This document shows positions 20,758 to 41,899 of a DNA stretch of 64,000 bases, piece by piece. The notes beneath the pieces are model-generated. The model was given only the letters and a program-made list of their open reading frames with translations. It made no database searches and was not told where the DNA came from. This DNA is from Sclerotinia nivalis (lineage: Eukaryota > Ascomycota > Leotiomycetes > Helotiales > Sclerotiniaceae). The stretch covers positions 1,550,001 to 1,614,000 of the forward strand of contig JAPEIS010000007.1 of NCBI GenBank assembly GCA_029531795.1, written 5' to 3'. Both the position numbers and the translations under genes were made by a program. Within the stretch, counting starts at the first letter, position 1. Each line of letters starts with the position of its first letter.

Positions 20758-22618
20758 TTAAGTAACGTCAATCTTTTGCCTTTTTAAGAAAACTGACAAG
20801 ACGAGCGCCACTGCTCCAGCAGCGATAGGTAGGACGAAAAGCTTCTTGAAGCTGCTCATGATTATGTCCAGAATATCATCCTGTACGTTACGGTCTAAAG
20901 TCTCAAAGAATGAATTCCCCAGACCGGAGATAAGCCCTTGAATTTCGGACAAGCTTCGATCTGGAAGGAGCTTTATAATGCCGTTCTGTGCAGTATTCAG
21001 AAAGACAGTATCGCCAATTGCCAAGGAAAGTGCTGCTCCACCTGACTGGGCACAAGTCAAGAAGCCCGTTACAATGGGAATATCTTCGGGAGCAACAAGG
21101 AATTGAGCAACCGCGAATGATGCTTGACTCCAGCCGCCGACGAATGCCATGAGCACAGTATATCCATAGATGGCGCTGAGAGAAGTGTGTCTCCCGATTG
21201 TAAAGAGGAGCGCAGAACCAATAACTTGGAGAGCGGAGCACCCAAAATACCAAGGCATATAGTAGCCCCATTTTGATAAGGTGAAGCCATTGACAAAAGT
21301 CATAGTAACCATGACCAGAATAAATGGAAGGAGCTTGAGACCCGAATCCAATGCCGACTCGCCGTGGATAATTTCGAAAAAAATGGGAATGAAGTATATT
21401 GGAAGGAATACTGCTGCTCCAGCGCACGCTGTCTCGATGAACAGAATGACTATCTCTTTTGATCGGAGGTATTTTATCGGAATCAATCTGTGTTCCTCCG
21501 TCGTCCCCAATGTATATACTTGCTGAGCGGCTAATGCAATGAATAAAATGCCCCCGGTCACGAAAAGGCCTATGATTGACCCAGAATTCCATGGAAACAA
21601 TAAACCGCCGAAGGCGATTGCCATCAGCAAGCAAGCTATGGCACCCAAGAGAAGGATAGCACCAATCCAGTCGATTTTTCCCCATCGCTGGAGAAGGCTC
21701 AAGCTAGATCGGGGTTTGGAGTTTGGGACAAGGAATACGTATACAGGAGCGAAGACTCCTCCGATGCAAAGGTTGATATAGAATCCCCATCTCCACGTGG
21801 CGCTACTATCAGCAAAAGCGCCTCCTATGAAAGGACCGACTCTATAAATTTGTCAACGTTATGTACTAGATTGAGTAGGATTGATTCTTACACCGTGCCA
21901 ATACCCCAGAGTATCTATGGTTATCCAGATTAGTATATTGGGCACGAAGATCTATATGGAATGCTTACACCTATCAGACCAAGATATATTGGCCGCTCAG
22001 TTTTTGATGTATTCTCCGACATCACAGTCATGACGCCGATATACATTCCTATGCCTCCCAGTCCGCAAATAGCTCGACCAACAATAAGAGCGTCCATGCC
22101 AGGGGCACCGCCACATATCGCGGAGCCGACCTCAAAAATCAATGTTGTAAAAATATAAACATACTTCGCGTCGAATGTGCTATATGCCTTCCCCCTGTGT
22201 GTCACTACATGTTAGTACTGATGATCTGTGCATAGGGCAGGATCGCAGCTGCTTACCACATGAGGTTTGTTCCAGCCGCTCCTAGCATGAAAGCTACTGA
22301 AACCCACGTTAGCTTTCCCACTTCATCGAATTCTTCGACAATTGCCGTCTGAATATCGGCAACGATAGTGTTGTCTATGGCGAACAAAAATGTCGATGAT
22401 GAGATACAAGCCACGACTAAGATCCAAGAAATCCCTCTGATTGTTCGAGTAGAGCTTTCCCCTGCAGTATCTCCCTCTCTTTCGACCGCAGCTTGGGCAG
22501 AAGATGTCTCTCTTCCGGGTCTCTTTTCGACTTCATTAGCAGAATTTCCGACGAGCTCCGGATTCTCTAACGTTCCGATTGAGCTACTGTCAGCTGGTTG
22601 CGCCGGTGAAAATGCCAT
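20758..22618 (-). CDS. MFS drug/toxin exporter, DHA2 (14-TMS) type
   Basis: Proton-driven plasma-membrane efflux transporter of the kind that commonly exports fungal secondary metabolites. Exons are 22618-22257, 22194-21969, 21914-21892 and 21841-20758, giving 564 aa. The third exon is only 23 nt (ILWGIGTV); including it restores the antiporter motif C, GIGTVVGPFIGGAF. The first about 60 residues are hydrophilic, followed by WILVVACISSSTFLFAIDNTIVADIQ (TM1 with the DHA2-type D-N-T-I motif A/D1 region) and VGRAICGLGGIGMYIG. Many further hydrophobic spans run to the Lys/Arg-rich C-terminus. It is divergent from the P450 at 23206 and defines the left edge of the accessory block. Substrate is not visible; export of the RiPP product is inferred only from position. 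Confidence 0.88.
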
Positions 22619-23205
22619 GGTACTGTATAAACGTCAAGAAAAAGTGTTGTTGTCAAATTCGTATGATAACCTTTCGCTATGTATGAATAAATTGCATTCT
22701 AAGTTCAAAAGTAATTGGCCAGGCCTTAATCTAGTATAGTATACGTGGTATTTAATGGGAATTAGATACTTTCATTGCTTCAAAAGAGATTTATTTTGAT
22801 TTCAAATATAGAATAGTACATATCCTATCAAATCGTGACTTTAGTTGATGAATACTTATTAGAAATCTAGGATCGTTTAATCCCATGTGCCGCCCGCTAG
22901 AAATTTTAGTGGTTAGTGGTTGCTCCGAACCCCCCTGCTGGCTGTTCACCGATTATGTTACACCCAATTTCGCACTAATGCTTGCCGCTGTTTTCGCATC
23001 ATAGGGACTAGGTAGTCATGGATTCTGCTTTTTGGTAAACGGTTTGATGCATGCGAGGCTGTGCCATCCACACTAAACTTGAGGGTTGGTTTCAGTTGGG
23101 ATAGTTTAAGATTCCCCCGGAATATTTCTTCTTCAAAGAATCAGAATCTTCAGTCTTTTTCTCAATTCTACCATTTGATCCGAAGACTCATACCATGTTC
23201 TAACT
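22619..23205. promoter_or_regulatory. Divergent promoter region MFS / P450-1
   Basis: 587 bp between two head-to-head accessory genes, so co-regulation is plausible. AT-rich from 22740 to 22880. No specific binding site can be assigned from sequence alone. Confidence 0.4.
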
Positions 23206-24708
23206 ATGGCTCTCTACACCACATTGGATCTCAGCTATCCATCATTATTGCTCCTCTGCACCATTCTTCTACTTACAGTTCGTGCTCTACGAAGCCACCT
23301 AAGCTCCTATCGAATGCGAAAAGGATGTCAGCCACCACCATCTATTCCTCAAAAGGATCCTTTTTTTGGGCTTGATATAATCTACGGCCGGTTTACAGAA
23401 ACATACGAAAAGCAATCGCGTGACACCATCGCCAGAGGTCTCTTCACGAAATATGGCCATACATTTCAATCATTCCCCTATGGTGTTGCCGAAATCTTCA
23501 CTGAGGCTCCTGAACACGTGAAAGCTATATATGGGACAGACTTTGAATCATTTGGCGTTGGCCCCATGAGGTCTTTTGGTTTGAAGCCCTTGGCAGGTGA
23601 CGGCTTGATGTCCACCGACGGTGCTGTTTGGAAGGCGCATCGTTCCCTTCTCACTCCGATCTTTGCACAGGCCGCAAACCATCAACATTTGTTTGAGCAA
23701 CACGTTGCACGTCTTCTGGCGTTGATTCCTGAAGATGGCTCCACTGTTGACCTACAGCCACTTTTCGATCGTCTAGCACTCGATTCCTCCTCAGACATTT
23801 TATTCGGCGAGTCGACGTTGACCCTCCTGCCAGAGACTCCAGCAGATGCCATGAAATTCCTGGATGCTTATAACTACTCCCTACAAGGCGTTGGTATGAG
23901 AATGGTACTGCCATTCTGGGATTTTCTTTCTCGCGATCCAAAGTTCTGGTCTTCATGCAAAGATGCGCAAGACTTTGTTGACAGAATACTCGACAAAGTA
24001 ATGGACACAGCTACATCGGCTAGCCAAGAGCAGAAATACTCTGTGGCATACGGGCTAGCAAGCTTAGGTCAGGATCGAGTCAAAATTAGAGATGAGCTTC
24101 TGGGTTTATTCCTTCCAGTCCACGACGCCATCGCAACACCTCTTACAAACATGTTCTTTAATCTGGCTCGGAACCCTCAAGCGTGGACGAAGTTGCAAAA
24201 AGAAATATCAACCGTTGGATCCGCAAAGCTCACTCCAAAGCTTGTCAAGAGTTTAAGGTACCTAAACTGTGTCATCAATGAGACAATGCGACTATATCCT
24301 GGCATAAGTGCAAACGAGCGTATTGCGCTTCGTGACACAGTTCTTCCGACAGGAGGGGGGCCTAATGGCACTTCTCCAATCTTCGTAAAGAAAGGCGTCA
24401 AGGTTGTAATTTGGTTTGCTTCAATGTCTCGACGGAAGGATCTTTGGGGAAATGATGCTGAAACATGGCGGCCGGAGCGATGGGAAGGCGACTTCAAACC
24501 TGATCGTTGGATTAACCTTTCCTTCGGAGCTGGATCACGAATGTGTCCAGCTAGTGATCTTGGTGTTACTCAGATTGCAATAACTACCATCAAAATTTTG
24601 CAGAAGTTCAAGGGTATTGAAAATCGTGATCCGGTGAAGGAATTTGTGGATCGTTGGAGAGTAACAACCGTGAGCAAGAACGGAGCCCAGGTTGGGTTAA
24701 TACTTTAA
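23206..24708 (+). CDS. Cytochrome P450 with degenerate I-helix and haem motifs
   Basis: Single-exon 500-aa P450 resembling the CYP52/CYP63 alkane-hydroxylase-like group. It has an N-terminal membrane anchor (about 5-30), the Pro-rich hinge with PQKDPFFGLDIIYGRF, VWKAHRSLLTPIF (C-helix), the K-helix ExxR as ETMR (359-362), and PERWEGDF. The haem loop reads FGAGSRMC at 440-447 followed by P-A, whereas the family rule is FxxGxRxCxG. The I-helix position normally AGxDT(T/S) reads PVHDAI (304-309), lacking the conserved Thr. The frame is fully open, so it is not obviously a pseudogene. It may be catalytically altered or relaxed. Substrate unknown. Shares overall layout with the P450 at 29885. Confidence 0.9.
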   Translation: MALYTTLDLSYPSLLLLCTILLLTVRALRSHLSSYRMRKGCQPPPSIPQKDPFFGLDIIYGRFTETYEKQSRDTIARGLFTKYGHTFQSFPYGVAEIFTEAPEHVKAIYGTDFESFGVGPMRSFGLKPLAGDGLMSTDGAVWKAHRSLLTPIFAQAANHQHLFEQHVARLLALIPEDGSTVDLQPLFDRLALDSSSDILFGESTLTLLPETPADAMKFLDAYNYSLQGVGMRMVLPFWDFLSRDPKFWSSCKDAQDFVDRILDKVMDTATSASQEQKYSVAYGLASLGQDRVKIRDELLGLFLPVHDAIATPLTNMFFNLARNPQAWTKLQKEISTVGSAKLTPKLVKSLRYLNCVINETMRLYPGISANERIALRDTVLPTGGGPNGTSPIFVKKGVKVVIWFASMSRRKDLWGNDAETWRPERWEGDFKPDRWINLSFGAGSRMCPASDLGVTQIAITTIKILQKFKGIENRDPVKEFVDRWRVTTVSKNGAQVGLIL

Positions 24709-26577: not shown

Positions 26578-29500
26578 GATTGATCAAGGTCTTAGTTGAT
26601 GTTGCCTGTAGTTTGTAGCTTGTAACTCTGGGTCTCTTGTATTCAGATCGCTGTTAATTTATCAAGTGTGAGAGTGCTTTCAAAAGCCAATCGTCTTCGT
26701 TCCCTAGGGGGTTTCTGATATCGTAGGTTATAATGCTATTGATGATAGCTTAGGGCACATAAAATAAATGGAAACGTTTGTAGCTAGCTTGTGGCTAATC
26801 TTAGGACTAAAACGTAACGCTTAACAAGACAAATTCCTACAGAAGTGTTCAGGTGGTAAACTGAATGGTCATCCAAAAGTTGCGACTTAGATCCTTGAGG
26901 GTTTGGATCCAAGTGTCAGCAGCAGGTTGCCATGAGTATCTCTTTTCGAAACGGAACTGGGGGCGGCCTCTCTGCTTAGATTTCTCTTTGAATTCAACAT
27001 ATTTTCATTGAATATTGAAAAAAGAGCCAAAAAAAGGCACAGCCATGCAACTGCGACTCTGATATTCTATTCTTATTGGCTGAGGACAACAAGGGCTGCA
27101 CACCAACTCTGTTTCTTTCCAGGATTTTCCAGGGTGTAGCATTTGAAGTCAAGACGTGACTGTACCGTGGCTAATGATACATGCACTCCTTCAAAGTTTC
27201 AGATGATTCTAGCAGAAATCACGGAAAGAGCAGAGAAAAACGAAAATGCAGGTTGCCGAGGCGCCAATGCTTGTGTTCTGCAGCACATTTTCTGCATTCT
27301 TCAGTTGAGTCACCAGAACAATCCAGTAGCGCACACCAGTTGGAACAGGAATGATATGAGACCTAGGGTCTCCGCCGCACGCAAGTATTCCAAAACCCAC
27401 ACCACCAGTTCGGTGTATATTTAGTCCCGTCTTACGTGGTCTCTACTCGGCATGAAAAATCAACATCCCAATCCAAGTTCAAGAATAATGAGGAGCTGCA
27501 ATAAACTCCTAAAGTAGACCTGGGTTCGGTAAGAAAATTTCAAGGGACAAGGGTTCTCAGTGACATATGAAATGCGACTGGTCAAATTCCTTGATTTCGA
27601 TCAGGATTCTGCATTATTTCTCTGAATTTCTGCAGCAAGGTCATCATGGATTATGATTGTTGGTATCACTCCGGCGATACTATTCGCATAGTACTATTAT
27701 AGTATTTGTATTTGTTGATTCTTGATTGCTACATTATGAAATGAGGGCGCTATTTATATTGAAGGGGAAGGGGCTAGAGTTCGCTAATGGTACGGCTCCT
27801 TGTGAGGTTGGTCGCATGATATACCGACAATGATATAACATCATAGCAAGGGCAAACCTGCCCGGCGTTAAGCTACAATAACAAACTCCTGCAACATCAT
27901 CGCTGGCGTAATTCAAAACCCGTTGAAAATTCAGTGGGAGTATGCTGGTTGCAATATTGGGACTCGCGAATGGATGTGTCATCAAGGTCGAAGCGCTATA
28001 TTTGATTGTGTGAAAGCTTAGTTCCCGGATGCGGTTATGAAGCTACCTGCCCTACTAGAGAAATAATCTCTCTGTTAGTGCTTATACACTACTATTAAAT
28101 AAAGTTTCAGCAAGTTGCGCGCATCTGTGTTGGTCAAAAGCTCCACTTTGAAAGTTCTACACATGAAGATTTGCCCGAACGATGGTACGAGTTGTGGATA
28201 AGACACTACCCCACAGGATGAATGCAGTTCTGATCTCCTGAATTAAGATGATGTAAGGCTGTGGTCCAAATGTTGTGCTATGAAATATTTCCATGGATCT
28301 AGCCTATCCCCAAAATGAAACTAGCTAGTGCACTTCGTATAGAGCGCCAAGTGAGAGATCCTATTGTTTCAACAGAAATTGCCCTTTCGAGTGATATACT
28401 CATGACATATGAGAATTTTGTGGAATAAATTTACCGGAATCACCTAGTAGAAGCAAGAGCTGTCTAAATACAAGGTTTAGTTGGAACAAGGAACTGTATT
28501 TCTAGATCTAGGTTTTGTGAGAATTCCTAATAAGTTATTAAATCACTTAATAATATTTACCGAACCAATGGTTATATGATCACGTGATGTATTAATAATA
28601 TGATTTCATATTATTAAATTTTATTATTATATAAAATTTCGATTATATATTATATTAGAATGATTTATAATAGAATAGAATGAAATAGAAATATATAGAA
28701 TTTTCTTATTAAAGAGTTAAAGAATCGGCTATAACTATCAGAGTAGAAAAGCTTGTAAAACTTTGTATTATCCTTCTAATTCTATTCCTTTAATATCGTA
28801 TCGGCCCGCTTTCGGCTAGTCTACATTCCGAACCTCCATTCCATATTCAAGGATCGTAACATTTCTTATTCTTAGATTGTGTGACGATGGTGTCACGGTT
28901 CGAAGGATTAGGTAAGCCGATCACCCCGATGGGCCCCCGAGCGACTAGCGCTCGAACCCTGGTTTTCCAGCTCTTTACAGCAATTGTATTACACTAGAGA
29001 ATAACAAATTACTATATAATATATAATAGAGTTAAGCCTTTTCTAATCTCCGTAAAGGGGATCAAAACCTTAAGCGAATGAAAAGCCCTGCCCAGGGTGG
29101 CGTTCTGAGGCATTTATACCAGAATCGTTATAGATTGAATATTATTAATTATTATTTCCTTTTATTATATAAAATAATTCTATAAGATTCGATTTAAATC
29201 GATCTTATTTATCACAGAGGCAACAGACAGGACAACAGGAATCACTTTTATTAATAAGACGTAGCTCGAAGAGCTACGTTTCTATAGAAGGAACGGTTCC
29301 TTAAATACATTTATGTGTCACGGGGTCCCCGTATATGGTATACGGAGACCGCTCGGGTTCCGACCCATAGGAGTCGGACCTCGGATAAGTGTAGGCTAGC
29401 CCCGGTCGGGGCTAGCGCTACACATAAATGTATTTAAGGAACCGTTCCTTCTATAGAAACGTAGCTCTTCGAGCTACGTCTTATCAATAAAAGTGATTTC

Positions 29501-29884
29501 TGTTATCCTGTCTGCTGCCTCCGTGATATTATGTGTAGCGCTAGCCCCGACCGGGGCTAGCCTACACTTATCCGAGGTCCGACTCCTATGGGTCGGAACC
29601 CGAGCGGTCTCCGTATACCATATACGGGGACCCCGTGACATTATTTATAATTATAGAATAGTATAGAATTTCATTAAAATCTATAAATACGAAGATTTTC
29701 TTTAAAGAATTCTTCGAAAAAACAAATAGATCAAAAATCAATTTCAATATTTATATAGTTCTAACTTCAATATTATTCTATTATTTATATATTCGATCAC
29801 TTCTAAGCTAAATATGACTAAGTCTTCTACAATTATAATAGATAATATTATAGTATTATTATTATATTATTTATTATTATCCGA
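26578..29884. other. 3.3-kb repeat-bearing, AT-rich gap inside the accessory block
   Basis: No supported gene. From about 28540 to 29880 the sequence alternates very AT-rich DNA (for example 28600-28720) with compact GC-rich islands at 28890-29100 and 29310-29640. The island at 28891 starts TGTCACGG, and the one at 29316 also starts TGTCACGG and ends GTGACA at 29640; TGTCAC..GTGACA is a common LTR terminus in fungi. Together this suggests nested remnants of retroelements with AT-biased decay such as RIP. Open frames at 27143-27424 and 27734-27985 lack family resemblance and are rejected. Confidence 0.5.
29209..29640. repeat. Interleaved inverted repeat A-B-A'-B' (LTR-like termini)
   Basis: Segment A (about 29209-29319) is repeated in reverse complement as A' (about 29421-29529). 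Segment B (29316 to about 29426) is repeated in reverse complement as B' (about 29530-29640). B starts TGTCACGGGG and B' ends CCCCGTGACA. Within the segments lie short perfect palindromes, for example GACGTAGCTC/GAGCTACGTC around 29263-29280 and the GC palindrome around 29394-29416 (GGCTAGCCCC..GGGGCTAGC). A and A' differ by several substitutions while B and B' are nearly identical. I read this as a rearranged solo-LTR or fold-back element. Confidence 0.75.
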
Positions 29885-31538
29885 TCAACCTCCTCCGAGA
29901 GGTTTGAGCGAAACAACGCAACCGTGTAAGTTCTTCGCTGTCAACTGCAGCTGCCCCATCCAATCTTGGTTATCACGGCTTTCAATTTCGGAAAATTCTT
30001 GCATCATCCTAACAACTATATATCCGGATTCAATAAGTGCTTTTTGTTGACCCATACAAACCCTCGGTCCAGCACCAAATGGAATGAATTCGCCTGGACC
30101 AGGCTTGAATTTGTTGTCCCACCGTTCTGGTTTGAATTCTGCAGCATCCGGTCCCCATATAGCAGCATCTCGGTGAAGGGCATAGGATGAGGTGCTGAAC
30201 ATCGTGCCTTTGGGGATGTAGATGGGAGACTTTCCATCAGGCCCACCACCACTTGGCAACGATGTAGATTTTAGAGCCGTCCGAAAGATATTGGGTAGAA
30301 TAGGATACATTCGAAGTGCTACAGTTTGAAGGTTATTCGTCAATTAGTGTTCTCTGAATTCATAAAGTGAAGTCTCGGTTTCTCTTACCTTCATTCAGGA
30401 CCATACGGACATACTTCAGTCTGGAAATACAGTCCCAGTCTAGATCGGAATCTCCAACAGCATCCACCTCCTCTTGTAACTTCCGCCATGCTCCTGGGTG
30501 ACGGGAGAGAAGAAAGAAAACGTTTGCCAAGAGGTTGCCTGTGGTTTCTTGGGCTGCCATATGTGCTTGCATTACTTGCCATCGAAGATCCTCACGATCA
30601 CCTGTTTGTTCTGCAATGCTCTGAAGCAGGGTTCGGTTTGATGAATCGGATATTTTCGAATCTTTACCCTCAAGATACTGTTGCCGATATTCTATAGCTC
30701 TCTCGACGTAATAATCTGCGAATTGACGAACTTTCTGGCAAGCTTCATACCATTTTGGGTCGCGGTAGAGGAATCTCAATGGCCCTAAGACAACCCGGAT
30801 GCCGCATCCACGCATTGCGTAGTCGAACGCCGCCAACACACCTTCGGCATGGAAAGGTACATTCTGAGAGAGTGCGCCGATGGACTCGCCAAATAGAAAA
30901 ACTGTTGCTATGTCTAGGTACTAGGTATCAATCAATATACACTAAGGGAAAATGATTGTAAATTTGGATCGAGAAACAGAACTCACAAGATCCGCGAAAA
31001 GGGGCAATAAATCTATTGTAGATCCATCTTTTGGTATACGCGATAGCATGATTTGAAAATGCTCCTCGAGCGATGTCAAGTTAGAAATGTAGGACCGCTG
31101 AAAGCCTGGTTTAAGCAGTGACTTCGCATGTGCCCATTCCTCGCCATCAGTAGTGATGAAACCGCGTCCGCAAAACGGCTCTTGTGCCGCAAGCCTAATA
31201 GGTTGCACACCCCATTCTGTGCTTCTAGTTGAAAACACGGTATGTATATTTTCCGGCTCGATTGAGTTTATCTGAGTTCTTCCTAAGTTACTCGTTTGAA
31301 AAGTGCGTCCGTGGTCAGCGAAGCGTTGAGCAATTTCCGGAAGCATGCGATGCTCCTTGAGAAGTTTCCCCGTTTTGATAAAGAGATCAAGACCAAAAAA
31401 AGGTTCCATATGCGGGTATTTTCTAGGAGGAAGATGTCCATTTGATCGTGCAAGGCGATGTCGGTACAACCAGCAGAAGGCATGATAACCGAGTAGGATG
31501 CAGAGGGCTGCGCATGCAAATGTAGACAGGCTTGCCAT
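29885..31538 (-). CDS. Cytochrome P450 (CYP52/63-like), intact catalytic motifs
   Basis: Exons 31538-30987, 30920-30389 and 30318-29885 give 505 aa. The start was chosen at MASLSTFACAALCILLG because it opens directly on the membrane anchor; in-frame ATGs at 31622 and 31583 would add up to 28 residues. Motifs: HMEPFFGLDLF, GFITTDGEEWAHAKSLLKPGF (C-helix), I-helix AAQETTG, K-helix reconstituted across intron 2 as ENEALRMYP (ExxR in EALR), PERWDNKF, and haem loop FGAGPRVCMG with the Cys near residue 449. The acceptor TACCTAG at 30921 (not the second TAG seven bases on) keeps frame and gives FADLYLDIATVFLFGES. Unlike the P450 at 23206, all key residues are canonical. It neighbours the RiPP precursor, so an oxidation role like UstC in the ustiloxin pathway is possible but unproven. 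Confidence 0.9.
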
Positions 31539-33641
31539 CTCAATGGAAAGACGTTGAATTATTTTGTGAATTATCGACAACATACGATTTGAATTGTTAT
31601 CGGTAACAGTGTTGCAAGCCATGTTCAATTCGAGAATGAGCTTTGGGGTATAGTAAGGGAATCACGCATGCCATTCACATGACCTACAGTAAGGGTTTTG
31701 TACGCCACTGTCACCTCCACGCTAAGCCCTTCGAGAGGTAAAGCGGGGATAAAAAAAAGCCGGCGTAGAAAAGCACACATGAGCGCCATGCAACGTCCTC
31801 CACCCTCACTCACCCTCACTCCAACGATCGTGCGTGAGCCAGCCCTGTTTGACGACTGCACCTTGCAAGGATGTCATGAGGTACTTATTTATAATGGCTC
31901 GGTGAGTTATTAACGACGAATATTTTCTTCACCGAAATACTAATTAATATCTATTCGAGCATGAAAAGGCGAGATATCAAACCTTACTTAATGTTACATC
32001 AAAATCATTAACCAACCAATTGTGAATGAACCAGGCAGAATACTATCCCCTAGATCTACAAGCCTGCTACATCAATCCCATAGCTGAGAATCTAATGCCC
32101 CAATTGAATAATGTATACGGTTTCAAATATAACGTGTCACCTCGATTGTGCCGTCGTCACCTGTGGCCTAAGTAAGTATAATGATGGAAGTAAGCAGGTA
32201 ACGTAGCCTCGAAAGGGGCCAGGCTCACGCTAACTCATGCTGTACTCCTGATACCCACATTGTGCCAGATCACCATAAGGCTTGTGGTGATCTACCCACT
32301 CCGTAATTTCTACTTGAGTTGGCCTTGGAAACACAACGGCCCGGGGAGCGAGCACTGCATCGACTACAACATTGAGAGATCGTACTTACGGGGAGGGGAG
32401 TAAGCTACAACAGCAAAGAATAAAGAAAAAATATCAGCATTCTCTTCATTGGCGGCCTATACCGTAGCTACGAACATAGAACCTAGCTAGTCACTTACAA
32501 AAATAATCATAGAAATGCCGAAACATACGGGAAGTCCGAGAGATCCCAGACCCCCGTAATCTCGCCAACTACTCGTACACTGTATGGAGTACCAGCATGA
32601 CAGTCAACCTTGCTTGTCCATATTTGGAGGCATACTCCGTACTCTGAACCATTCTGTCGGTTCAAGCCAAGCAAAATAGTTCTACAAGTGTGAAGATCAG
32701 TACAGTGGTGAGCTGCCCTTGCAAGGCGGCGGAAGACCCCGTTTTTAATCTCGAGCACATTCGCATAATGAACGGACGACATTTTCAATCTTCAGCGCAG
32801 TAGCATCGTGGGTCCTTACAAGCGGATGTTGCCATCAACGGAGTAGATGGGCAATGTTACTACGGGTTAGGAAGCACGGCAGTTCATCGTAAGCTTTGCG
32901 GTGCAGCGTAGCCGTCTTGCCCCACCCACTTTGCCAATTCAATCCTTCTTCATATACTGTTACTACTTTGGTACACGTTATCTACCTATGTGACACTAGA
33001 CAGATCGGACTTCGTCTGCCACATTTTCTCAAGTGTCTGTGGCACTTATGCATTACGCTGTGCGATCAATTCAACAAGCTCATCATGTATCTACCCGCCT
33101 TCACAATAATACTCGTGCTGCCAGAAAGTATGAAACTCGGACGCTAGAGAAACCAGGTTATTCCTGAAGTTTACTATCTTCTGGTACGTGCATAGAGTTT
33201 TGGGGTTGCATACTTTCTGGCCGCACGAGTACATCGCAGGGTGTGGATCTCGCGGCTGCCTGTCATTTGTTGTTCTTGCGCCCCCATCACTGTAACTACT
33301 CCCTACAGGACTTTGTATGACAAGTGAATGGACGGATGTTCCACTGTAGGGATTACGTGGGCACTTCACGCGCAACACCCAGCACATAAATACACCACTA
33401 CAGTCCACGCCGCTCAGTTACATGATCAAATTCGTTGTTATCGTGCTTCGAAATGAATGACACTATCAAGGCTGCGCTAAAAAATGAGAGAAACACCAAG
33501 CAAGGAACTGCAGCCGAAACCAAGTCTCCACAATCCCCAAACATGAAAATATCTGCAACATAGTCCCAACTGCCTTGGAAATAACCCTGTCACACTGCCT
33601 AACACCGCCCTGTCCATACGACGGCCCATTGTAACAGTCTT
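31539..33641. other. Intergenic P450-2 / precursor, with one MITE
   Basis: 2.1 kb. Holds the P450-2 upstream region, a small TA-flanked MITE at 33112-33229 (listed separately), and a 93-codon minus-strand open frame at 32507-32788 that lacks a signal peptide or known family and is not called. No other supported feature. Confidence 0.45.
33112..33229. mobile_element. Small TIR element (MITE), family copy 1
   Basis: Terminal inverted repeats CTCGTGCTGCCAGAAAGTATG (left) and CATACTTTCTGGCCGCACGAG (right) differ by one base and are flanked on both sides by TA, the target duplication of Tc1/mariner elements. Total 118 bp with no coding capacity. Related copies occur at about 50011-50121 and 50445-50510. 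Confidence 0.75.
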
Positions 33642-33993
33642 CTAATTGATGTCTCGGCGATAATCTGGGTAAATTACAGATTCGTCTTCCTTTGCAGCGT
33701 CAACATATCTGTCTGCCACTGATCTGCGGTAGTCGGGGTAAATGACCGATTCATCGTTGGTACCTCTTCGATAGTCCGGATAGACGACCGATTCGTCACC
33801 TGTTGCTCTGCGGTAGTCTGGATAGACTACTCTCTCGTCGCTTCCATGGGCATCTCTGGCAAGTGCTAGGGTTGGTCAGCGGACACTTTTGTAAGTAGCT
33901 GTGAAGCATGATGTGACACATACCGGAAGACTTCGTTGGGGCACAGAACCCAAATGGAAGGATCGCAAGGAACGCAAGTCTCAAGAAATGCAT
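33642..33993 (-). CDS. Dikaritin-type RiPP precursor: signal peptide plus four YPDY-RR repeats
   Basis: Exons 33993-33924 and 33865-33642 (intron 58 bp, GTATGT..CTAG with branch CTGAC) encode 97 aa. Residues 1-18 form a signal peptide (MHFLRLAFLAILPFGFCA). The second exon encodes four near-identical blocks: VVYPDYRR (36-43), VVYPDYRR (50-57), VIYPDYRR (64-71) and VIYPDYRR (87-94). Three of the four are preceded by acidic DES, the first by DER. Repeat spacing is 14, 14 and 23 residues. RR is a Kex2 site, so predicted released units end in (V/I)YPDY. This layout, together with UstYa and tyrosinase neighbours, is the hallmark of UstA-like precursors (ustiloxin, phomopsin, asperipin). Only the CTAG acceptor keeps the repeat frame. 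No closely matching core is known to me. The function is inferred. Confidence 0.9.
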
Positions 33994-34396
33994 ATTGATT
34001 GTGAGTGGCGGATGGGGAATTGAGTCGATAACGAGTAATCTGTGATTCCGGAAAGCTTATGGAATTGGGACTTGGGTGGCTATTGAGATTTTAAGGAGGG
34101 AATTCTAGTTATATTTATACGTTTTTTGGAAAGTGCTATGTGCGGTCATCTGGCGTAGACACCGAATACACCAGGCACACCAGAACTGGAAAGCTCTTGA
34201 TAAATCTCTGGTAATCTTCCTACAGTTATACTTCTTCAATTGTTGGCCAATCTCATCTGTGTTAATCACAACCCCACAACTTCTCACTCCCTGTATCATT
34301 TTCGGAAAATCACAAAGTAAACATCCAAGTTTGAACAACTTCGGTGTAATTCTGGACATCTTAAGCCATCTCCTATTCTGTCAAAACCAGAAAGCA
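33994..34396. promoter_or_regulatory. Divergent promoter region RiPP precursor / UstYa-1
   Basis: 403 bp between the head-to-head precursor gene and first UstYa gene, so shared control is likely. CGGAAA occurs on each side (CCGGAAAGC at about 34048, TTCGGAAAATCACA at about 34299), but two short matches are weak evidence for a regulator site. Confidence 0.45.
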
Positions 34397-35287
34397 ATGG
34401 GACAATGGGAGGAAGAGCCGGAGGCATTTCCATTTCTTTCTTCTTCTAGCGCCCGAAAGCAAGAGAAGAAGTATGTTACAGCTATTGGCCTACATCTCTG
34501 TATCTTTCTTCTATATTCCTTGGCTATTCTTTCATACTTAAAATATCACACCTCCAAGAGTAAAATCTCCTTATCCGAAATGAGTACGTGTGCTTCAAGA
34601 TAGTCGAATGGACCAACAGCGAACTAATCAAGCTCCAGGCTTCAATCAGGAAGAACTCTTGGTAAACCCACAGTATTTTGGACTCGCTGAATCTAGCATC
34701 TATGCTGGGGCACCCAGTACAGACTTAGATAATGCGTGGCAAGACTTGCTTTCCGGGATCAACATTCGAGTTTCGCAAGCCGAGCTTGAGAGAACAAATC
34801 AGACATCCGTCCAATTGCAGAACAGTCAAGATCGACTTGCATGGCTCGAGGCTTTTCATCAGCTTCACTGTGTAGTTCGTATTAATCCTTCCGTATAGTG
34901 CTCTACTCATGCTGACAAGTGAAACGCTCAGAAATTCGTGAGGCAAGCTATATATAGCAACCACTACTTTCCTGATGTTTCAGGAGACGAGAGAACCCAC
35001 TGGCTTCTGCATGCAGGTTCGAATATCTTTCCTCTGGATATGGAGCACTTCTAACATCTTTAGATCACTGTGTTGAGCTATTGCGACAAGCAGTTATGTG
35101 TCATGCAGACACCTCATTAATGACTTTTGAGTGGACCTCAGAGAATGAAAAGCCGATGCTGAAACTGGATGGACCGAAACATACATGTGTCAATTGGGAC
35201 GATCTTCGACTTAAAGTACAGCCACGAATAGTCAGCGATGAAGAAATGGGCAGTCTCAAGAACCCGTCGATCCGAAGGAATATGTAA
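34397..35287 (+). CDS. UstYa-like (DUF3328) oxidase 1
   Basis: UstYa proteins catalyse oxidative cyclisation of Kex2-released peptides in dikaritin pathways. Exons are 34397-34583, 34639-34874, 34932-35016 and 35064-35287, giving 243 aa. A short acidic cytosolic N-tail is followed by one TM helix (about 26-48) and a lumenal domain. Both family motifs are present: HQLHC at 136-140 and HCVELLRQAVMC at 171-182, with a late TCVNWDDL cysteine/Trp site. The first intron uses donor GTACGT and an acceptor CTCCAG after a CTAAT branch; other acceptors break frame. Introns after the TM (phase 1) and after HQLHCV (phase 0) match the other two UstYa genes here. It is divergent from the precursor gene and convergent with the tyrosinase (39-bp gap). 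Confidence 0.9.
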
Positions 35288-35325
35288 ATTCGCAGTTTGT
35301 TTATAATGCTATAAATCCGTTTGGC

Positions 35326-36485
35326 TCAGTAAATATAGCATAATATCTCTGTCTCCGTGCTCATTATTTCTGACACAGTTATTGCTCGTCCCAAGCCACC
35401 GACGTGAAGAATGTCATTGATTGATGCATCTCTGCTAGACTCAGCAGTACCTACCTTTCCGCCATAATCTCTTAGCCTTCTTCTAGGGTCGATTTGCTGC
35501 CATTCCCACCATAAACGATCAACTTGTGTATGATGAAGGAAGAAAATCGGATCTGTGCTAGTATTAATTAGCATGCGAGTCTTTGCGCATCAGTACTTGA
35601 ATTTTCTTAGGCACACGAACCATTAGGAGATGTAAAACTTCCAAACTCACCCTGCAAGAATGCAGGTATAGCACGATGGGCACCATCTTCCAATGCAAGA
35701 TTGAAACTTCTGTAGTCTGAGGAGTCGAAGGTTTCTTGGAGGGATGCTGGACTAAGTCTTGAAGTAACAAATTTGTCTTTCTCCAAACCATGTCGAAAGC
35801 CACGAGATAAACAATGTTGTTGTTCGCTATCCTCGTAATAGAAAAGGGTCATGTTTGCAAAGGGTCCATCAGCAACACATCTTCCTTCCCCTACACCGAT
35901 ATCTCCTGTGCCATCGCCCCCGAATCCGTCCTCGCCGTCCCAAACCGGCGACTTTTCGATATCGGCCCAGTCTAGCTCCCAGTCCCAGTAAGCTAGATAT
36001 CCGAGGTAGTCGCATTGTTCCCTTAAAGCTTGCTCGTAGATGTGAATAAAATAACGGTGCCAGGGCAAAAAGCCGGCTGTTTCATGAGCATAATCACCAA
36101 TTTGGATATGCGAGTAGCCAAAGTCATCATATAACGAGTGATTGGTTCCTAGTATAGATGGCTTGGAACGAAGACATTTCACTGCCTCAAGATATTCGTG
36201 TTTTTCATTCCTACTGAGGGTACGCCATTCACGACGAACAACGGGAGTGATGCATATTGACGACTTAGAATGTTGTATGAGTTGGTCGGTATAGATAAAG
36301 ACGAGCGATATCATGATGAAAGAAAGGCCGCTGTATGTGAGCAGCCATGGGTTAACGTTTTTCAAAACTGCAATTGGTTTATTTGACTTCTTCAAGGTGC
36401 TGTAAGCCGGCTCGCGGAGTTCCAGATCATGATCAGGATCGAAAGTTGGAACGGTTGAGTATTCTTCAAGAGACGCCATTGTCAT
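35326..36485 (-). CDS. Membrane-anchored tyrosinase (UstQ-like)
   Basis: Type 3 dicopper oxidase that hydroxylates tyrosine side chains. Exons 36485-35617 and 35557-35326 give 366 aa. Residues 1-46 are cytosolic and a TM helix lies at about 47-66. The CuA histidines are H126 (YSH), H134 (YAH) and H143 in GFLPWHRYFIHIYEQALR. The CuB region has GAHRAIPAFLQG and, across the intron, TDPIFFLHHTQVDRLWWEWQ with His298-His299. Donor GTGTGC after GGT TC gives PNGS-TDP in frame. It lacks the C-terminal shielding domain of classical tyrosinases and is short, as is usual for RiPP-cluster tyrosinases. The type II anchor would place it in the secretory lumen with the UstYa proteins. The core peptides carry two Tyr each, a fitting substrate; this is inference. 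Confidence 0.9.
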
Positions 36486-36873
36486 TTTTATTCTTTGGAG
36501 CAAAAGGTAGACAATGAATATCTTTTGTCTCCTTAAGGAGTTCTGTGTTCAGTGGAGGTCCACAAGAACTAACATGCTATCATACAGACGAACCTCGCAG
36601 ACATGGTGTCTCTTTAGTGGTTTTACCCCGCCACTCCACGAGCTGACTAGTAGGGATTTGGATCCATTAGATGACTGATATCTACCTTGAATTAAAGCCA
36701 CAGAGACAAGTATGACAAGTTGCCGAACGTCTTCCCTCTACATCTTGTATTCTCTTAGGAGTCCACCGCTTTTTAGTGTATGTGTTGAACATTCAATTTG
36801 CACATTCGGAAATCTAAAGCCGACTTCCCTCGAGCTCATAATACAGTCTTCGGCCACTTATCACCTATCAGTG
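36486..36873. promoter_or_regulatory. Divergent promoter region tyrosinase / UstYa-2
   Basis: 388 bp between head-to-head cluster genes, carrying both promoters. No element is assigned. An upstream in-frame extension of UstYa-2 to 36712 lacks an ATG supported by family length, so I treat it as leader. Confidence 0.4.
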
Positions 36874-37852
36874 ATGCAGCAAAATATGGAAGATCAGCCA
36901 ATGCTTTCTAGCTACGAAGAAGACAGTGTGAAATTGACCGAATGCGAGTATAGGCAGCGAAACTCAAAGCCATGGAACTGGGTGCTATATGCGCTTCTAG
37001 TTCTCTCGGTTCTGGGCAATATTCTCCTCTTGACATCGCATATTCAGAAGGTCGCAATTGATAACCAGGCTTCCACTTCTGTACTTACAAAATATGGTAT
37101 GTGCACATGAGCCTTCAAAGCCTTTTTATCTAATATTGTTTCCTCTAGCTGGTCTGGCACGAGACACCGTGTTAGCCATCAACTCATCATCACCTTATGG
37201 GCTTGGAAGCAGAAGCGAGATTGAGCGATCTATATTATGGGAAAGTCTCGATACAAGCACAGGTGAAATCAGCCTCGACACCAAGTGGGCAAAGGCACAA
37301 GGCCTTCCGGACTCCCAAGAATTTTTTTGGAATAAAAATCGCAGTATCTATCTTATCAACGCTTATCATAGTGTTCACTGTCTCGTGAGTACTGCCCTCG
37401 ATGGATACTTTGATAACGAAATATTAATTTACAAGTAGCGGAAAGTCCGCCGATGGGTGACTATCAGCTATCACAATGGAACTCAGCTAGATAGCTATCC
37501 TCATCTCATCCATTGCATGGATCTTTTACTGCAAAATACTATATGCGAAGCCGACGACACACCGATGTACACATCTGCAACACAGAATGTCACAACCGGC
37601 ATGGGCCAACAACGCATGTGCCGCAGCTGGGATAAGCTTAGCAATTGGGCAAGTAAGCAAACAGCTTGCTTCAGTTACATCAACGAAACTCAGGGAGTGG
37701 ATGCTGTTATTCAGCGTTTTAGGTATTGCCCACAAGAAAGCGGTCTGCTGGAACCCATGAGACAGTCCTTCGGATATAAGGAAGACTGGTTTGAGGAGCG
37801 AGTATCAGAGATTGAAAGTATGCCACACTACTGGGAAAACTTTGAAGGATGA
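36874..37852 (+). CDS. UstYa-like (DUF3328) oxidase 2
   Basis: Exons 36874-37096, 37149-37384 and 37439-37852 give 290 aa. The N-tail (about 1-28) is acidic, and a TM helix lies at about 29-50 (NWVLYALLVLSVLGNILLL). The first family motif is YHSVHCL, with HSVHC at 148-152 instead of the more usual HQLHC. The second is HCMDLLLQNTIC at 178-189. Asn-X-Ser/Thr sites on the lumenal side (NSSS, NKNRS, NGT, NVT, NET) are consistent with secretory-pathway location. It carries an extra C-terminal segment of about 60 residues with two more cysteines (RYCPQES region). Intron positions and phases match UstYa-1 and UstYa-3. The start is the first ATG directly before the acidic tail; an ATG-independent upstream frame exists. 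Confidence 0.88.
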
Positions 37853-37982
37853 TATGAATGAAAACACCAAACTATTGGCGCAAAAATTTTCTTCAGTCGT
37901 ATGGAATCAAATTAGAAGTAACGCAGTTTCTCTCTCGTAGTTTCTACCTACTCGCTAAAGTCCCTTTATGTCGCTAGGTATG
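37853..37982. other. 3' flank of UstYa-2
   Basis: Short stretch between the UstYa-2 stop and the TIR element. No feature seen. Confidence 0.3.
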
Positions 37983-38694
37983 TGTTCCAGGCCATTGCGC
38001 AAATTTGACATTCCGAAATCAACATAGCTCATTCCGAAATATACTAGGTCGCGATATGAGCTAATTGATACCGAAATTGGAAAAAATGAGGGCATTTGCA
38101 AATAAACTAAGTTTATACAAAAATAATATATTCAATATCCTAGTTCATTGGTTAATAAACTAACAAACAGATAAAAAAGAACTACAATCTTATCGTTATC
38201 TTTATTTCAACCTCATCATCGCCATTTTCAACCTCATTATCACCATTTTCAGCCTCATCGTCGCCCCTACTCTTGTTTTCAACCCCATCGTTATCTTTAT
38301 TCCTATTTTCAATCTCATTATCGCTTCTTTCTTTATTTCATTTAATTAATATAAATAGAATTTATAATTGAAATTATTATATGAAATAATATTGAAGCTT
38401 TTTCTTATAAATCTTGAATCCTTATAAGCTTTAAATCCTTATAGACTTTAACTTTTTGTAAATCTTAATTTATTTGTTGAATTGATATAATAGGATACGA
38501 AAAATATTTGTGAATGAACTAGCTCATTTGTGAATAATCTCAATTTTACTATATACAGATGCATTTAATACCCTAGCTCATTCCAAAATTAAGCTCATTG
38601 ATGAATAAGCTAGGGCATTGATCTATGAGCTAGCTTATTTCGGAATCAACATAGTTGATTTCGGAATGAGAATATTGCGCAATGGCCCGGAACA
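37983..38694. mobile_element. Non-autonomous TIR element between UstYa-2 and UstYa-3
   Basis: The left end TGTTCCAGGCCATTGCGCAA is mirrored at the right end as TTGCGCAATGGCCCGGAACA (reverse complement with one mismatch). The inverted similarity continues inward for about 60 bp through CATTCCGAAATCAACATAG / ATTTCGGAATGAG motifs. The 712-bp interior has no coding capacity, AT-rich subterminal repeats (AGCTCATT, CTAGCTCATTC) and an internal tandem array (listed next). No target duplication is clear. I take it as a MITE-like deletion derivative of a DNA transposon. Confidence 0.75.
38190..38340 (+). repeat. Degenerate tandem array of about 18-20 bp units inside the TIR element
   Basis: About seven imperfect copies of a TTTTCAACCTCATYATCGCC-like unit, with interspersed ATCGTTATCTTTATT spacers. 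Non-coding. Confidence 0.7.
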
Positions 38695-39303
38695 TGTTAC
38701 CGTAATCACACCTTCGCGCTTCGCGTCGTTCCGTTGTAGATTGGTATTATTATCGAATTTCTGTACTTGGCCGCATGCCGGTGGTGATACATCGTATTTG
38801 GAAGCTTAAGTTAACGTTCCTGAACCCAGGATCGCATATTCATTGGAACGCAGGAGGAGGATTTGCATCAAATGACGCATTTATCCCTGGCTTGGAGCAA
38901 TTTGCTACCGAAATGCGTGCTTACGGCCCCCTTCCATCCTTTTTTACCCGCGAATTATCTCCAGAGTCCACCACCATTTCAGAATCATCCAAAAGCCGAG
39001 TTCTTCAGCCAATCAGAAATAACTCACACCCGAGCTCCGATTAAATGAATTATCTTCAGGACTTGCACCCAGCCTCACGTTTGCAGGAACCAGGGTATGG
39101 GTTATCTATGGTGGTGTGGTAATATGAGGTATACATGATGATCATGACCCATGTTATTTGGCCTTTGATGCCTGACTCTTTTTTTCGGGGACTTTGAGAC
39201 TCCCACTCCTTTTTGCAAATTCTTACTCCTTCTTTTCCCTCACTTCATCAAAATTGAGAAAGGGTGTGGTTCAGTGAATCATATTTCTTTCTCACATTCG
39301 ACT
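38695..39303. other. Intergenic upstream of UstYa-3
   Basis: 600 bp of promoter/5' region. Short open frames at 38775-39048 show no family resemblance. Pyrimidine-rich stretch at 39178-39245. No other support. Confidence 0.35.
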
Positions 39304-40046
39304 ATGTCTAGCATGGGCCATCGATATGACTTGGTAGATGGTGGGCGTGCGGGGAAGGCTAGGGGAGCTGGAGACCTTGGCAGAACTATGGCATATCATC
39401 TTCTGCTGATGTGCATAATATCAGCGGCATTTTTTGCAGGGAGGTATTCCACCACCAAGACACTTGATCTTGTGTCTGCACATGAGCTTCAGCGTTAGTG
39501 TCGATTCTAGTGTTATGGATTCATATGGCTAACCATCCAAAGTCGATACTGTACTCGACACTTTTAAATACAACAAGACCTTTGGAGAGCCCCCCTCTAA
39601 GACTTCCGATGAAGCATGGGAAAGTCTATTTCCCGTTCATGGTGGATTTTTCAAACATCCTCAATTAGCACCTGAGCGATCTGCCTTCTCTGTTTTCCAT
39701 CAACTTCATTGCTTGGTAAATTATGCACGTTCTTTGTGAAGCTTCAGAGCTGACCGTTCAACAGAATTCTCTTCGGATTGGGTTTTGGTCTGTGTATAAC
39801 GGCCGACACAAACGTTCGACTATGGGGCCAGAGCATGAACATGGAAGCGGCGATATGGTGGACCTTTCCCATATGCGCCACTGTATTGATCTTTTGCGTC
39901 AAAGTCTCATGTGCCAACCAGATTTAACAATCGAGAGAAAGAACGAAGAGCTTGGAGGGGTGACTGGATTCGGTACCGAACATCAATGTAAGAACTGGGA
40001 GCAGCTCCAACTCTGGACATCGCAATGGGAGAAATTCAACAATTAA
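39304..40046 (+). CDS. UstYa-like (DUF3328) oxidase 3
   Basis: Exons 39304-39493, 39543-39715 and 39765-40046 give 214 aa from MSSMGHRYDLV; an upstream in-frame ATG at 39274 would add ten residues. A Gly/Arg-rich N-tail is followed by a TM helix at about 29-48, then SDEAWESLFP, HQLHC at 116-120 and HCIDLLRQSLMC at 160-171, and a closing CKNWEQLQLW. First intron phase 1 after the TM; second intron phase 0 directly after HQLHCL, as in the other two copies. Shortest and most compact of the three UstYa genes. Separated from UstYa-2 by the TIR element. Confidence 0.9.
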
Positions 40047-40379
40047 AGCTTAGAATGCAAAGAACTCAAACGCTTAGATCTCAATATTCATCACTTCTGC
40101 TTCACATGTATGATTCCGGAGGCCTAAAAACAAACACCTTTTGACAATATTAGCGTGAATTGCCATTCCAGTGATCATATGCCTTTAAATGAAAGAATAG
40201 AACAGTGAAAGCCATGTCCTTAAAATGAAGTGCCTGGATTTGCTCCCACAATAAACTTCAAGATCTTAAGTCAGCGGAAAAGACCTCGGCCAAAATCACT
40301 TGCCAAACACAAACATACCACTAAATTTTCTAAACACCACAACGAGGTCCAGCCTGACTTAGAACCAAAGCACAACACA
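40047..40379. promoter_or_regulatory. Intergenic UstYa-3 / O-methyltransferase
   Basis: 333 bp between same-strand genes, containing the terminator of one and promoter of the next. An A/C-rich leader (about 40290-40379) precedes the ATG, whose context CACAATGA is good. Confidence 0.35.
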
Positions 40380-41899
40380 ATGAGCAAGCAAAACAGTAGC
40401 CGCATGGCTCAACTAGCTGCAAATATCTCGAAGAACACAGAAATATTGGACCACTATTTACAAGTCCATAACATTCCACCTCTATCTTTTGATAAAGGAG
40501 CACCCATCGATCTCAAATTCCCAGCAGAGATTCTTCAGGCACAGGACGCCATATTCGAGTCAAGTGTAGAGCTTCAAGCGCTTGTCAAAGGCCCAATTGC
40601 GAATATTCGTAATCAAACAATGCCTGTAAGTCCAGAACTTTTGAGGTCCAACACAGTGAAAAATCTTAAGCTGATATTCTTCATCTCTATCTTCAGCATT
40701 GTAATTTAATTCCTTTACAGGCTATTATTCGCTTTGGCATTGCTACGAGTTTTCCTATCGAAGCCAAGGCCTCGTACAAGCAAATATCGGAAGTCTGTGG
40801 TTTGAATGAAGTAGAACTTCGACGACTCTTGAGACATGCTATGACCAACTATATCTTTCACGAAACTGACGAAGGGCTGGTAGTTCATACAGCGTCTTCA
40901 AGGGTGCTGGCCGAGAAACCAGCTTTCAGGGATTTTATTGGAATGGTGTGCGATGAAATGTGGCCCGCTGCATCTCGTGTAAGTGTCAAATACCTGCGAG
41001 TGTTCCTACCTGGCTGCTAACACAACTTGTTCGAAGACTGTTGATGCGATGGTTAAATGGCCTGGCTCCCAGGAACCCACACATACGGTATTCTCAATTA
41101 TTTACGAGTAGAGAGGACTTTACTCACATGTTCCAGGGCTTTGCGATCGCCAACAACATCGAGAATACTTTGTTCTCCGAACTAGGCAAACATCCTTCTC
41201 GCGCAAAGAGGTTCGGTAGTGCTATGGTTATGGTGAATAGTGAGGTCGGGTTTGAGGCATCTCACATACTTCATGCATTCCCATGGTGGGATTCGATCGA
41301 AACATTCGTCGATGTTGGCGGTTCTCTTGGAGAAATAAGTATTACTCTGGCAAACCATTTTCCGAAACTTCATTGTACCAGTCAGGATCTTCCGGTAGTC
41401 GTAGCTCATGCACGTTTGTCTGTGCCCCAAGATATATCTGACCGAGTGACTTTCATGGCCCACGACTTTTTTACTCGGCAGCCTGTTGTTGGAGCCGATG
41501 TCTATTTATTCCGCTGTGTTTTACATAACCACTCTGACAAATACTGTGTCGAAATTCTCCGGTGCTTAGTTCCAGCTTTAAAACCTGGCGCTCGAATTAT
41601 CATTGCAGAATCCGTTGTACCACTGCCCGGTCAGGTTTCAAAATATAAAGAGTGGTTGATCCGGTATGCGTAAAGCTTTGTTGTTGAACGATAATTTTTA
41701 TCGCTAACATCAGTCCTCACTCAGATCCATGGACCTTGCGATGTCCGAGTTGCTCAATGCGAAAGAGAGAGATCTTGATGAGTGGAAGATGCTATTTAAG
41801 AATGCCAATGAGAACTTCCATTTCGTAGGAATTGAACAGCCGAAAAACTCAAATCTATGCTTTATCGAGGCGACATGGAACGTAGCTATGCTTGAGTAG
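40380..41899 (+). CDS. SAM-dependent O-methyltransferase (plant/fungal OMT family)
   Basis: Transfers a methyl group from S-adenosylmethionine to a hydroxyl. Exons 40380-40625, 40721-40978, 41037-41087, 41137-41663 and 41725-41899 give 418 aa, typical for fungal OMTs. The N-terminal half has the winged-helix dimerisation fold (LRRLLRHAMTNYIFHE, ASRVLAEKPAFRDFIG). The SAM loop VDVGGSLGEIS lies at about 242-252; GADVYLFRCVLHNHSDKYCVEIL holds the catalytic-His region and LKPGARIIIAESVVP the usual following strand. Exon 3 is a 51-nt micro-exon (TVDAMVKWPGSQEPTHT). Within the cluster it could methylate a (di)phenol made by the tyrosinase, or a carboxyl; substrate cannot be read from sequence. Right-most gene I assign to the block. 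Confidence 0.9.

What the first reader, a model, noticed from the sequence alone, without database searches (positions are those of the whole stretch)
29885..41899. Probable undescribed dikaritin-type RiPP biosynthetic cluster
A Kex2-repeat precursor with a signal peptide, three UstYa (DUF3328) oxidases, a membrane-anchored tyrosinase, an O-methyltransferase and an intact P450 lie within 12 kb. Known ustiloxin, phomopsin and asperipin pathways combine exactly such a precursor with UstYa proteins, often with a tyrosinase, a methyltransferase and a P450. The core here (YPDY type) differs from the published cores I know (YAIG, YVIPID/YVIPFD, FYYTGY). The product is therefore likely a new Tyr-rich cyclic peptide. 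Function is inferred from gene content.
Basis: partly seen in the sequence, partly recalled or inferred. Interest (0 to 1): 0.95.

Follow-up and report, generated by a model that had tools for sequence, protein, structure and literature searches.

The report
Fungal cluster making tyrosine-rich cyclic peptide
A stretch of an unnamed fungal genome holds a complete-looking gene set for a small ribosomally made, probably ring-shaped peptide of the dikaritin kind, with a repeat core (V-V/I-Y-P-D-Y) that I found in no paper I could search, and with an O-methyltransferase-type gene that recurs in two sister clusters of the same genome.

Summary
All seven genes are at the stated coordinates and read as intact spliced models: a 97-aa precursor with signal peptide and four V-(V/I)-Y-P-D-Y-R-R repeats, three UstYa (PF11807) genes, a tyrosinase-family gene, a P450 and a PF00891 O-methyltransferase-type gene. 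The repeats are real: 22 of 22 pairwise differences in YPDYRR are synonymous, and 4 of the genome's 5 YPDYRR-type sites lie in this gene. Gene content supports the dikaritin-type reading. Beyond the finding: the cluster probably reaches back to an MFS gene at about 20.8 kb, whose best relative in the genome sits in another precursor/UstYa locus; and relatives of the O-methyltransferase lie near two other UstYa loci with repeat precursors of their own (AYAWA, and AYAWF without dibasic sites). A 2025 paper says such enzymes had never been reported in dikaritin clusters. The tyrosinase, like its nearest relative among those read, lacks the second histidine of the CuB motif. 1758 precursors beside UstYa genes were already counted in print, so this is a new member of a known kind. 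"Undescribed" could not be proved: the protein database was off and supplements were closed. Cyclisation, expression and product are inferred.

The parts
20758..22620 (-). MFS transporter (last open stretch 20758-21852; 5' exons not modelled, start approximate), probable cluster exporter
   Evidence: PF07690/PF06609; best of 51 other exon-level genome matches is the MFS of the C6 precursor/UstYa locus, 312.8 bits, next 222.2
23206..24708 (+). second cytochrome P450, one exon, 500 aa; cluster membership uncertain
   Evidence: PF00067 166.7 bits; 33% identity to the other P450
25794..26583 (-). exons of a fungal-rhodopsin-domain membrane protein (not fully modelled); membership uncertain
   Evidence: PF20684 48.6 bits for the stretch 25794-26036; weak match (35%) to a like protein beside the C6 UstYa locus
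29885..31538 (-). cytochrome P450, 505 aa, introns 30986-30921 and 30388-30319
   Evidence: relative beside two UstYa genes on C8
33642..33993 (-). precursor, 97 aa, signal peptide then 4 x V(V/I)YPDYRR; intron 33923-33866
34397..35287 (+). UstYa1, 242 aa, 3 introns; 403 bp between its start and the start of the divergent precursor
   Evidence: PF11807 137.7 bits; HQLHC and HADHC
35326..36485 (-). membrane-anchored tyrosinase-family protein, 366 aa, intron 35616-35558; CuB motif HRAIP instead of HxxxH
   Evidence: PF00264 127.3 bits; motifs
36874..37852 (+). UstYa2, 290 aa, 2 introns; divergent from the tyrosinase (388 bp between starts)
   Evidence: PF11807 54.5 bits; HSVHC and HLIHC
39304..40046 (+). 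UstYa3, 214 aa, 2 introns
   Evidence: PF11807 98.6 bits; HQLHC and HMRHC
40380..41899 (+). PF00891 O-methyltransferase-type protein, 418 aa, 4 introns
   Evidence: PF00891 99.3 bits; relatives near two other UstYa/precursor loci

Best explanation
A dikaritin-type RiPP gene cluster. Inferred working: the precursor enters the secretory pathway by its signal peptide; Kex2 cuts after each RR, and a carboxypeptidase trims RR to leave peptides ending in ...V-(V/I)-Y-P-D-Y. The membrane-anchored UstYa proteins, with the tyrosinase-like protein, oxidise the peptide in the lumen and tie a tyrosine ring to a neighbouring side chain; one or more UstYa proteins may also desaturate Pro or Asp, as reported for phomopsin. 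Peptidases trim the N-terminal part, the P450 and OMT tailor the product (hydroxyl, methyl), and the MFS protein exports it. Shown here: gene content, open frames, repeats kept by selection on the protein, and recurrence of much of the gene kit in sister loci. Inferred: every chemical step, expression, and the exact core length.
For: Open spliced genes and Pfam matches; synonymous-only variation in the core; uniqueness of the repeat; two HxxHC motifs in 3 of 3 UstYa proteins. Sister loci in the same genome: C6 (OMT, MFS, two-repeat AYAWF precursor, two UstYa) and C16 (OMT, P450, four-repeat AYAWA precursor, two UstYa). The window MFS has the C6 one as best relative, and the C6 OMT is the best relative of the window OMT when exon scores are summed by hand. 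Tyrosinase relatives within 10 kb of UstYa: 2 of 10 loci outside the window, P 0.004; OMT 2 of 17, P 0.011 (loci grouped by hand from capped lists). A gene with a Kex2-type P domain exists on C5.
Against: No S41 peptidase or Zn2Cys6 pattern in the window, both types named as conserved in dikaritin clusters in PMC6514808. No shared promoter word beyond chance: 23 of 200 random draws did as well. P450 relatives near UstYa: 2 of 58, P 0.11. Of 8 other UstYa loci read over 7 kb or more, only 2 showed a repeat precursor, and one of these lacks dibasic sites. The tyrosinase lacks a CuB histidine, so ordinary tyrosinase activity is doubtful. Mobile elements lie at or in the cluster, so silence is possible. 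No transcript or product data.
Confidence: 0.82

Rival explanations
1. The repeat protein is a linear secreted signal or pheromone precursor, and its UstYa neighbours act on something else.
For: Signal peptide plus Kex2 repeats is also the layout of alpha-pheromone precursors (PMC6339444, passages); 6120 of 7878 such proteins have no DUF3328 neighbour (PMC7329392 section 7).
Against: The residues after the three internal repeat-RR sites are AT, GT and SV, not the XA/XP STE13 signature (DI follows the last); UstYa1 starts 403 bp from the precursor start; precursor-UstYa pairing recurs at two other loci; the abstract of PMC7329392 says that almost all genes annotated as pheromone or mating-factor precursors lack DUF3328 neighbours.
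Confidence: 0.07
2. A once-active dikaritin cluster that is now silent or decaying, with transposable elements inside it.
For: A repeat end supplies the last codons and stop of the P450; a 712-bp element with 68-bp inverted ends lies between UstYa2 and UstYa3.
Against: All seven reading frames are open and variation in YPDYRR is wholly synonymous.
Confidence: 0.12
3. Two unrelated neighbouring sets: precursor/UstYa/tyrosinase, and an OMT, P450 and MFS of another pathway.
For: The P450 association is not significant; the nearest solved relatives of the OMT are not named as RiPP enzymes.
Against: OMT and MFS relatives recur with precursor/UstYa genes on C6, and an OMT relative on C16; no open frame longer than 509 aa, so none of PKS or NRPS size, between 19.3 and 43.8 kb (introns could hide one).
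Confidence: 0.1

Closest known systems
Phomopsin and ustiloxin clusters (dikaritins)
   Same: Signal-peptide Kex2-repeat precursor, several UstYa/DUF3328 genes, a tyrosinase (UstQ, PhomQ); ustiloxin also has a P450 (PMC6514808, PMC7329392, PMC12048977, passages and sections)
   Different: The core is not of the YxI class; PF00891 enzyme instead of an N-methyltransferase; no S41 peptidase, and no flavin monooxygenase or PLP enzyme among the genes identified; RR rather than KR sites
Asperipin-2a cluster
   Same: Repeat precursor with a core holding several tyrosines (FYYTGY) plus a UstYa-type oxidase and a transporter
   Different: Four genes only, with one UstYa homologue and a reductase, no tyrosinase in the list (PMC6514808, passage)
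Epichloecyclins (gigA)
   Same: Four-repeat Kex2 precursor; cross-link between an N-terminal Ile and an internal Tyr, an order that V/I before Y here would allow (PMC9233826, PMC6514808, passages)
   Different: Different core; cross-link here not shown
Lichen RiPP clan R1 (Parmeliaceae)
   Same: Two UstYa-type genes, tyrosinase and an O-methyltransferase between the two (PMC12048977 section 14)
   Different: Clan R1 has an FGE-sulfatase and no P450, and its candidate precursors lack conserved repeats; the window has three UstYa genes, a P450 and a clear repeat precursor

Membership tests
Dikaritin | Precursor with signal peptide and repeats separated by Kex2 sites | tested here: met
   four repeats, RR sites; signal peptide judged by hydropathy and by eye, no dedicated predictor
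Dikaritin | UstYa/DUF3328 gene(s) beside the precursor | tested here: met
   Three PF11807 genes above cut-off; six HxxHC motifs
Dikaritin | Core peptide cyclised by UstYa proteins | not testable with these tools
   Needs the product
Dikaritin (phomopsin/ustiloxin branch) | UstQ/PhomQ-type tyrosinase | tested here: inconclusive
   PF00264 127.3 bits; no UstQ/PhomQ sequence was at hand to compare
Dikaritin (phomopsin/ustiloxin branch) | S41 peptidase in the cluster | tested here: not met
   One weak match in the whole genome, 26.3 bits on C8; the four-gene asperipin list in PMC6514808 has none either
Dikaritin (phomopsin/ustiloxin branch) | Zinc-finger regulator in the cluster | tested here: not met
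   No Zn2Cys6 pattern in any frame of the window (a motif split by an intron, or another finger type, would be missed)
Dikaritin (YxI class) | Core Y-x-I | tested here: not met
   Core is V-(V/I)-Y-P-D-Y
Alpha-pheromone precursor | XA/XP dipeptides after the Kex2 site | tested here: not met
   AT, GT, SV and DI follow the four RR sites

The most novel reading that the evidence does not exclude
The window and the C6 and C16 loci define a sub-type of dikaritin cluster in this fungal lineage in which a PF00891 enzyme is a standard part, acting on the cross-linked peptide (phenol methylation, or even a non-methylating reaction as in what I recall of its nearest solved relatives), and in which the tyrosinase-like partner of the window works without the second CuB histidine, so that it is not an ordinary tyrosinase but a partner of UstYa. 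The V-x-YPDY product would carry two tyrosines around Pro-Asp and perhaps two cross-links.
Probability: 0.3. Interest if true: 0.62.

Novelty: new member of a known kind. Interest (0 to 1): 0.45.

Why it matters
Only five dikaritins had been reported by 2022 (PMC10512285, passage), although 1758 Kex2-repeat precursor genes with DUF3328 neighbours were counted (PMC7329392 section 7). A compact, open cluster with a two-tyrosine core, three UstYa proteins and two sister clusters with different cores in one genome gives a natural comparison set for asking what each UstYa protein, the tyrosinase-like partner and the OMT do.

Tried and rejected
Protein database search with the precursor: not possible (database switched off). 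Viral-contig scan with the precursor: 16 stretches matched a pattern, none confirmed. Shared promoter word: the best (ACCACTAAA, 3 of 6 promoters) is no better than chance. CGG-type sites: none shared by two promoters at one spacing. Species by ITS: the only 5.8S match is below cut-off. No repeat precursor found in the C8 (L037) or C1 (L033) UstYa loci. Solved structures related to UstYa1: nothing better than E 0.21. Structure prediction was not tried, because I read the rule for that tool as covering contiguous translations and these proteins are spliced. Solved-structure searches were made for the tyrosinase, UstYa1 and the OMT only.
Full report
What is there. The window is contig C7:1550001-1614000 of a 50.3-Mb genome in 31 contigs whose name is not given; gene structure and families are those of a filamentous fungus. 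Splicing by hand gave open models for all seven genes of the finding: P450 31538-29885(-), precursor 33993-33642(-), UstYa1 34397-35287(+), tyrosinase 36485-35326(-), UstYa2 36874-37852(+), UstYa3 39304-40046(+), OMT 40380-41899(+). In these models all 15 introns begin with GT and end with AG; alternative splice sites exist and no transcript supports the choice. Pfam confirms the families above their cut-offs; the precursor matches none.

The precursor. It has a hydrophobic start (MHFLRLAFLAILPFGFCA), one 58-bp intron and four copies of V-(V/I)-Y-P-D-Y-R-R, spaced 14, 14 and 23 residues. The wider conserved block is D-E-x-V-(V/I)-Y-P-D-Y-R-R, so the true core may be longer than YPDY. Pairwise, all 22 nucleotide differences within YPDYRR are synonymous. 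Over the eight codons V-x-Y-P-D-Y-R-R, 9 of 24 columns vary and one residue varies; a null that places the same changes at random gives 5.3 variable residues and never (0 of 20000) as few as one. The DNA pattern for YPDYR(R) occurs 5 times in the genome, 4 of them here (control 0), and the precursor has no second copy found by protein search. A simple scan of the whole window found one other ORF with a four-fold repeat before dibasic sites, a low-complexity DV repeat.

The enzymes. All three UstYa proteins carry two HxxHC motifs. They are only about 25% identical to one another in the aligned parts, which fits separate jobs. The tyrosinase-family protein has three histidines (SHIQ, AHET, WHRYF) aligned with histidines of the solved catechol oxidase 4j3p; that these are its CuA ligands is recalled. 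At CuB it reads AHRAIPAF. Its nearest relative among the 7 of 10 other tyrosinase loci that I fetched, on C1 near a UstYa gene (L033; 39% identity), reads PHDTIPNM, and a third UstYa-linked copy (L034, with stops in frame) reads SAHITSSIG; four loci without a UstYa match within 10 kb (L016, L017, L019, L021) have HxxxH. Thus 3 of 3 UstYa-linked copies lack the second CuB histidine and 4 of 4 others whose motif I read have it; the motif of L018 did not show in the scan, and three loci were not fetched. Whether UstQ and PhomQ share this I could not test. The OMT keeps the motif VDVGGSLG and the histidine of LHNHSD aligned with LHKEPD of 7bqj; that these are the SAM site and the catalytic base of the family is recalled. 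Its best solved relatives are 7bqj and 7bqo (134.6 and 123.3 bits; next 90.4). As I recall, these are methyltransferase-fold pericyclases, so the label 'methyltransferase' should be held loosely.

The sister loci. The UstYa family gives 45 exon-level matches in the genome, a lower bound, 23 loci outside the window when grouped. Relatives of the window OMT lie within 10 kb of two of them, 2 of 17 OMT loci (binomial P 0.011); tyrosinases 2 of 10 (P 0.004); P450s 2 of 58 (P 0.11, not significant) (loci grouped by hand from lists that score only the best candidates, and the test was chosen after seeing them). I read 8 of the 23 UstYa loci over 7 kb or more (L032, L033, L034, L036, L037, L038, L039, and L041 with L002 and L042), five more over 3.2-3.5 kb, and ten not at all. 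A repeat precursor showed in 2 of the 8, namely the two with an OMT relative. On C16 (L036) four VDGDD(A/T)VAYAWAVDAE-type repeats with KKR sites follow a probable signal exon, with two UstYa genes and a P450 nearby and the OMT 4.9 kb from the nearest UstYa match. On C6 (L041, L002) two APADG(A/G)DDDDAIAYAWFNEDGTEK repeats follow a probable signal exon, without dibasic sites between them, with OMT (5.7 kb from the nearest UstYa match), MFS and two UstYa genes. The window MFS gene at 20758 finds the C6 MFS as its best relative of 51 other matches (312.8 bits; next 222.2), and summing the exon scores the C6 OMT is the best OMT relative (about 315 against 253 for the next). I therefore place the cluster at about 20.8-41.9 kb. 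Membership of the second P450 (23206-24708) and of the rhodopsin-domain protein (25.8-26.6 kb) is uncertain; the latter has a weak counterpart beside the C6 locus. On C8 (L037) a P450 (49% identical to residues 362-501 of the window P450) lies by two UstYa genes in the order P450(-), UstYa1-like(+), but I found no repeat precursor there. Flanking genes are housekeeping: SUN-domain protein (to 19.2 kb) and MYST acetyltransferase (from 43.8 kb).

Reading. PMC10512285 (passages) says that RiPPs produced from Kex2-repeat precursors and cyclised by UstYa homologues were named dikaritins; the locus meets the testable parts. PMC7329392 (passages and section 7) counts 1758 such precursor genes near DUF3328 genes, more than 40 types in 20 Aspergillus strains, and says that 65.6% of repeats in the 1758 contain tyrosine; tyrosinase genes near Kex2-repeat precursors are rare (4.3% of 7878). 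So the kind is well known and a new core alone is expected. [quoted passage not shown] three OMT-bearing precursor/UstYa loci in one genome are the least ordinary part of this result. PMC9233826 (passages) describes epichloecyclins as probably joined between an N-terminal Ile and an internal Tyr, an order possible here (V/I before Y); the V/I exchange at one position would be tolerated by a link to a beta-branched carbon, but this is inference. PMC10512285 reports that three phomopsin UstYa homologues are needed for cyclisation and for desaturation of residues, so Pro or Asp of YPDY might be desaturated; also inference.

Against. No S41 peptidase and no zinc-cluster pattern in the window, no shared promoter word beyond chance, only 2 of 8 well-read sister UstYa loci with a repeat precursor, mobile elements at or in the cluster, no expression or product data, and novelty checked only against main texts that could be searched.

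Noticed in passing
window 29885-29909: A repeat with 90-91% identity at 39 other scored places ends at 29900-29909, so the last about five codons and the stop of the P450 lie inside a mobile-element end; the C8 relative ends in different residues.
   Followed up: partly
window 37983-38694: A 712-bp element with 68-bp terminal inverted repeats between UstYa2 and UstYa3; parts of it match many places, but no other match covers its full length.
   Followed up: partly
window 29210-29640: Nested inverted repeats, one pair of 112 nt with 100% complementarity and one of 122 nt with 91%, next to the P450.
   Followed up: no
L036 minus 1813-1511 (C16:1008500-1015500): Second precursor with four AYAWA repeats and KKR sites, two UstYa genes, P450 and an OMT nearby.
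   Followed up: partly
L041 minus 6851-6348 (C6:1012500-1019500): Third precursor-like gene with two AYAWF repeats but no dibasic sites between them, with OMT, MFS and two UstYa genes.
   Followed up: partly
window 36485-35326, L033 and L034: UstYa-linked tyrosinase-family proteins (3 of 3 read) lack the second CuB histidine, unlike four others read from the genome.
   Followed up: partly
L033 (C1:3881500-3891400): UstYa genes, a tyrosinase relative (39%) and a zinc-cluster regulator-like ORF together, no repeat precursor found; retroelement-like ORFs on the flank by eye.
   Followed up: no
G000:C4:2620846-2620862 (L009, L035): The only YPDYR(R)-type DNA site outside the precursor; the repeat scan of the surrounding 9.9 kb showed no YPDY repeat there.
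   Followed up: partly
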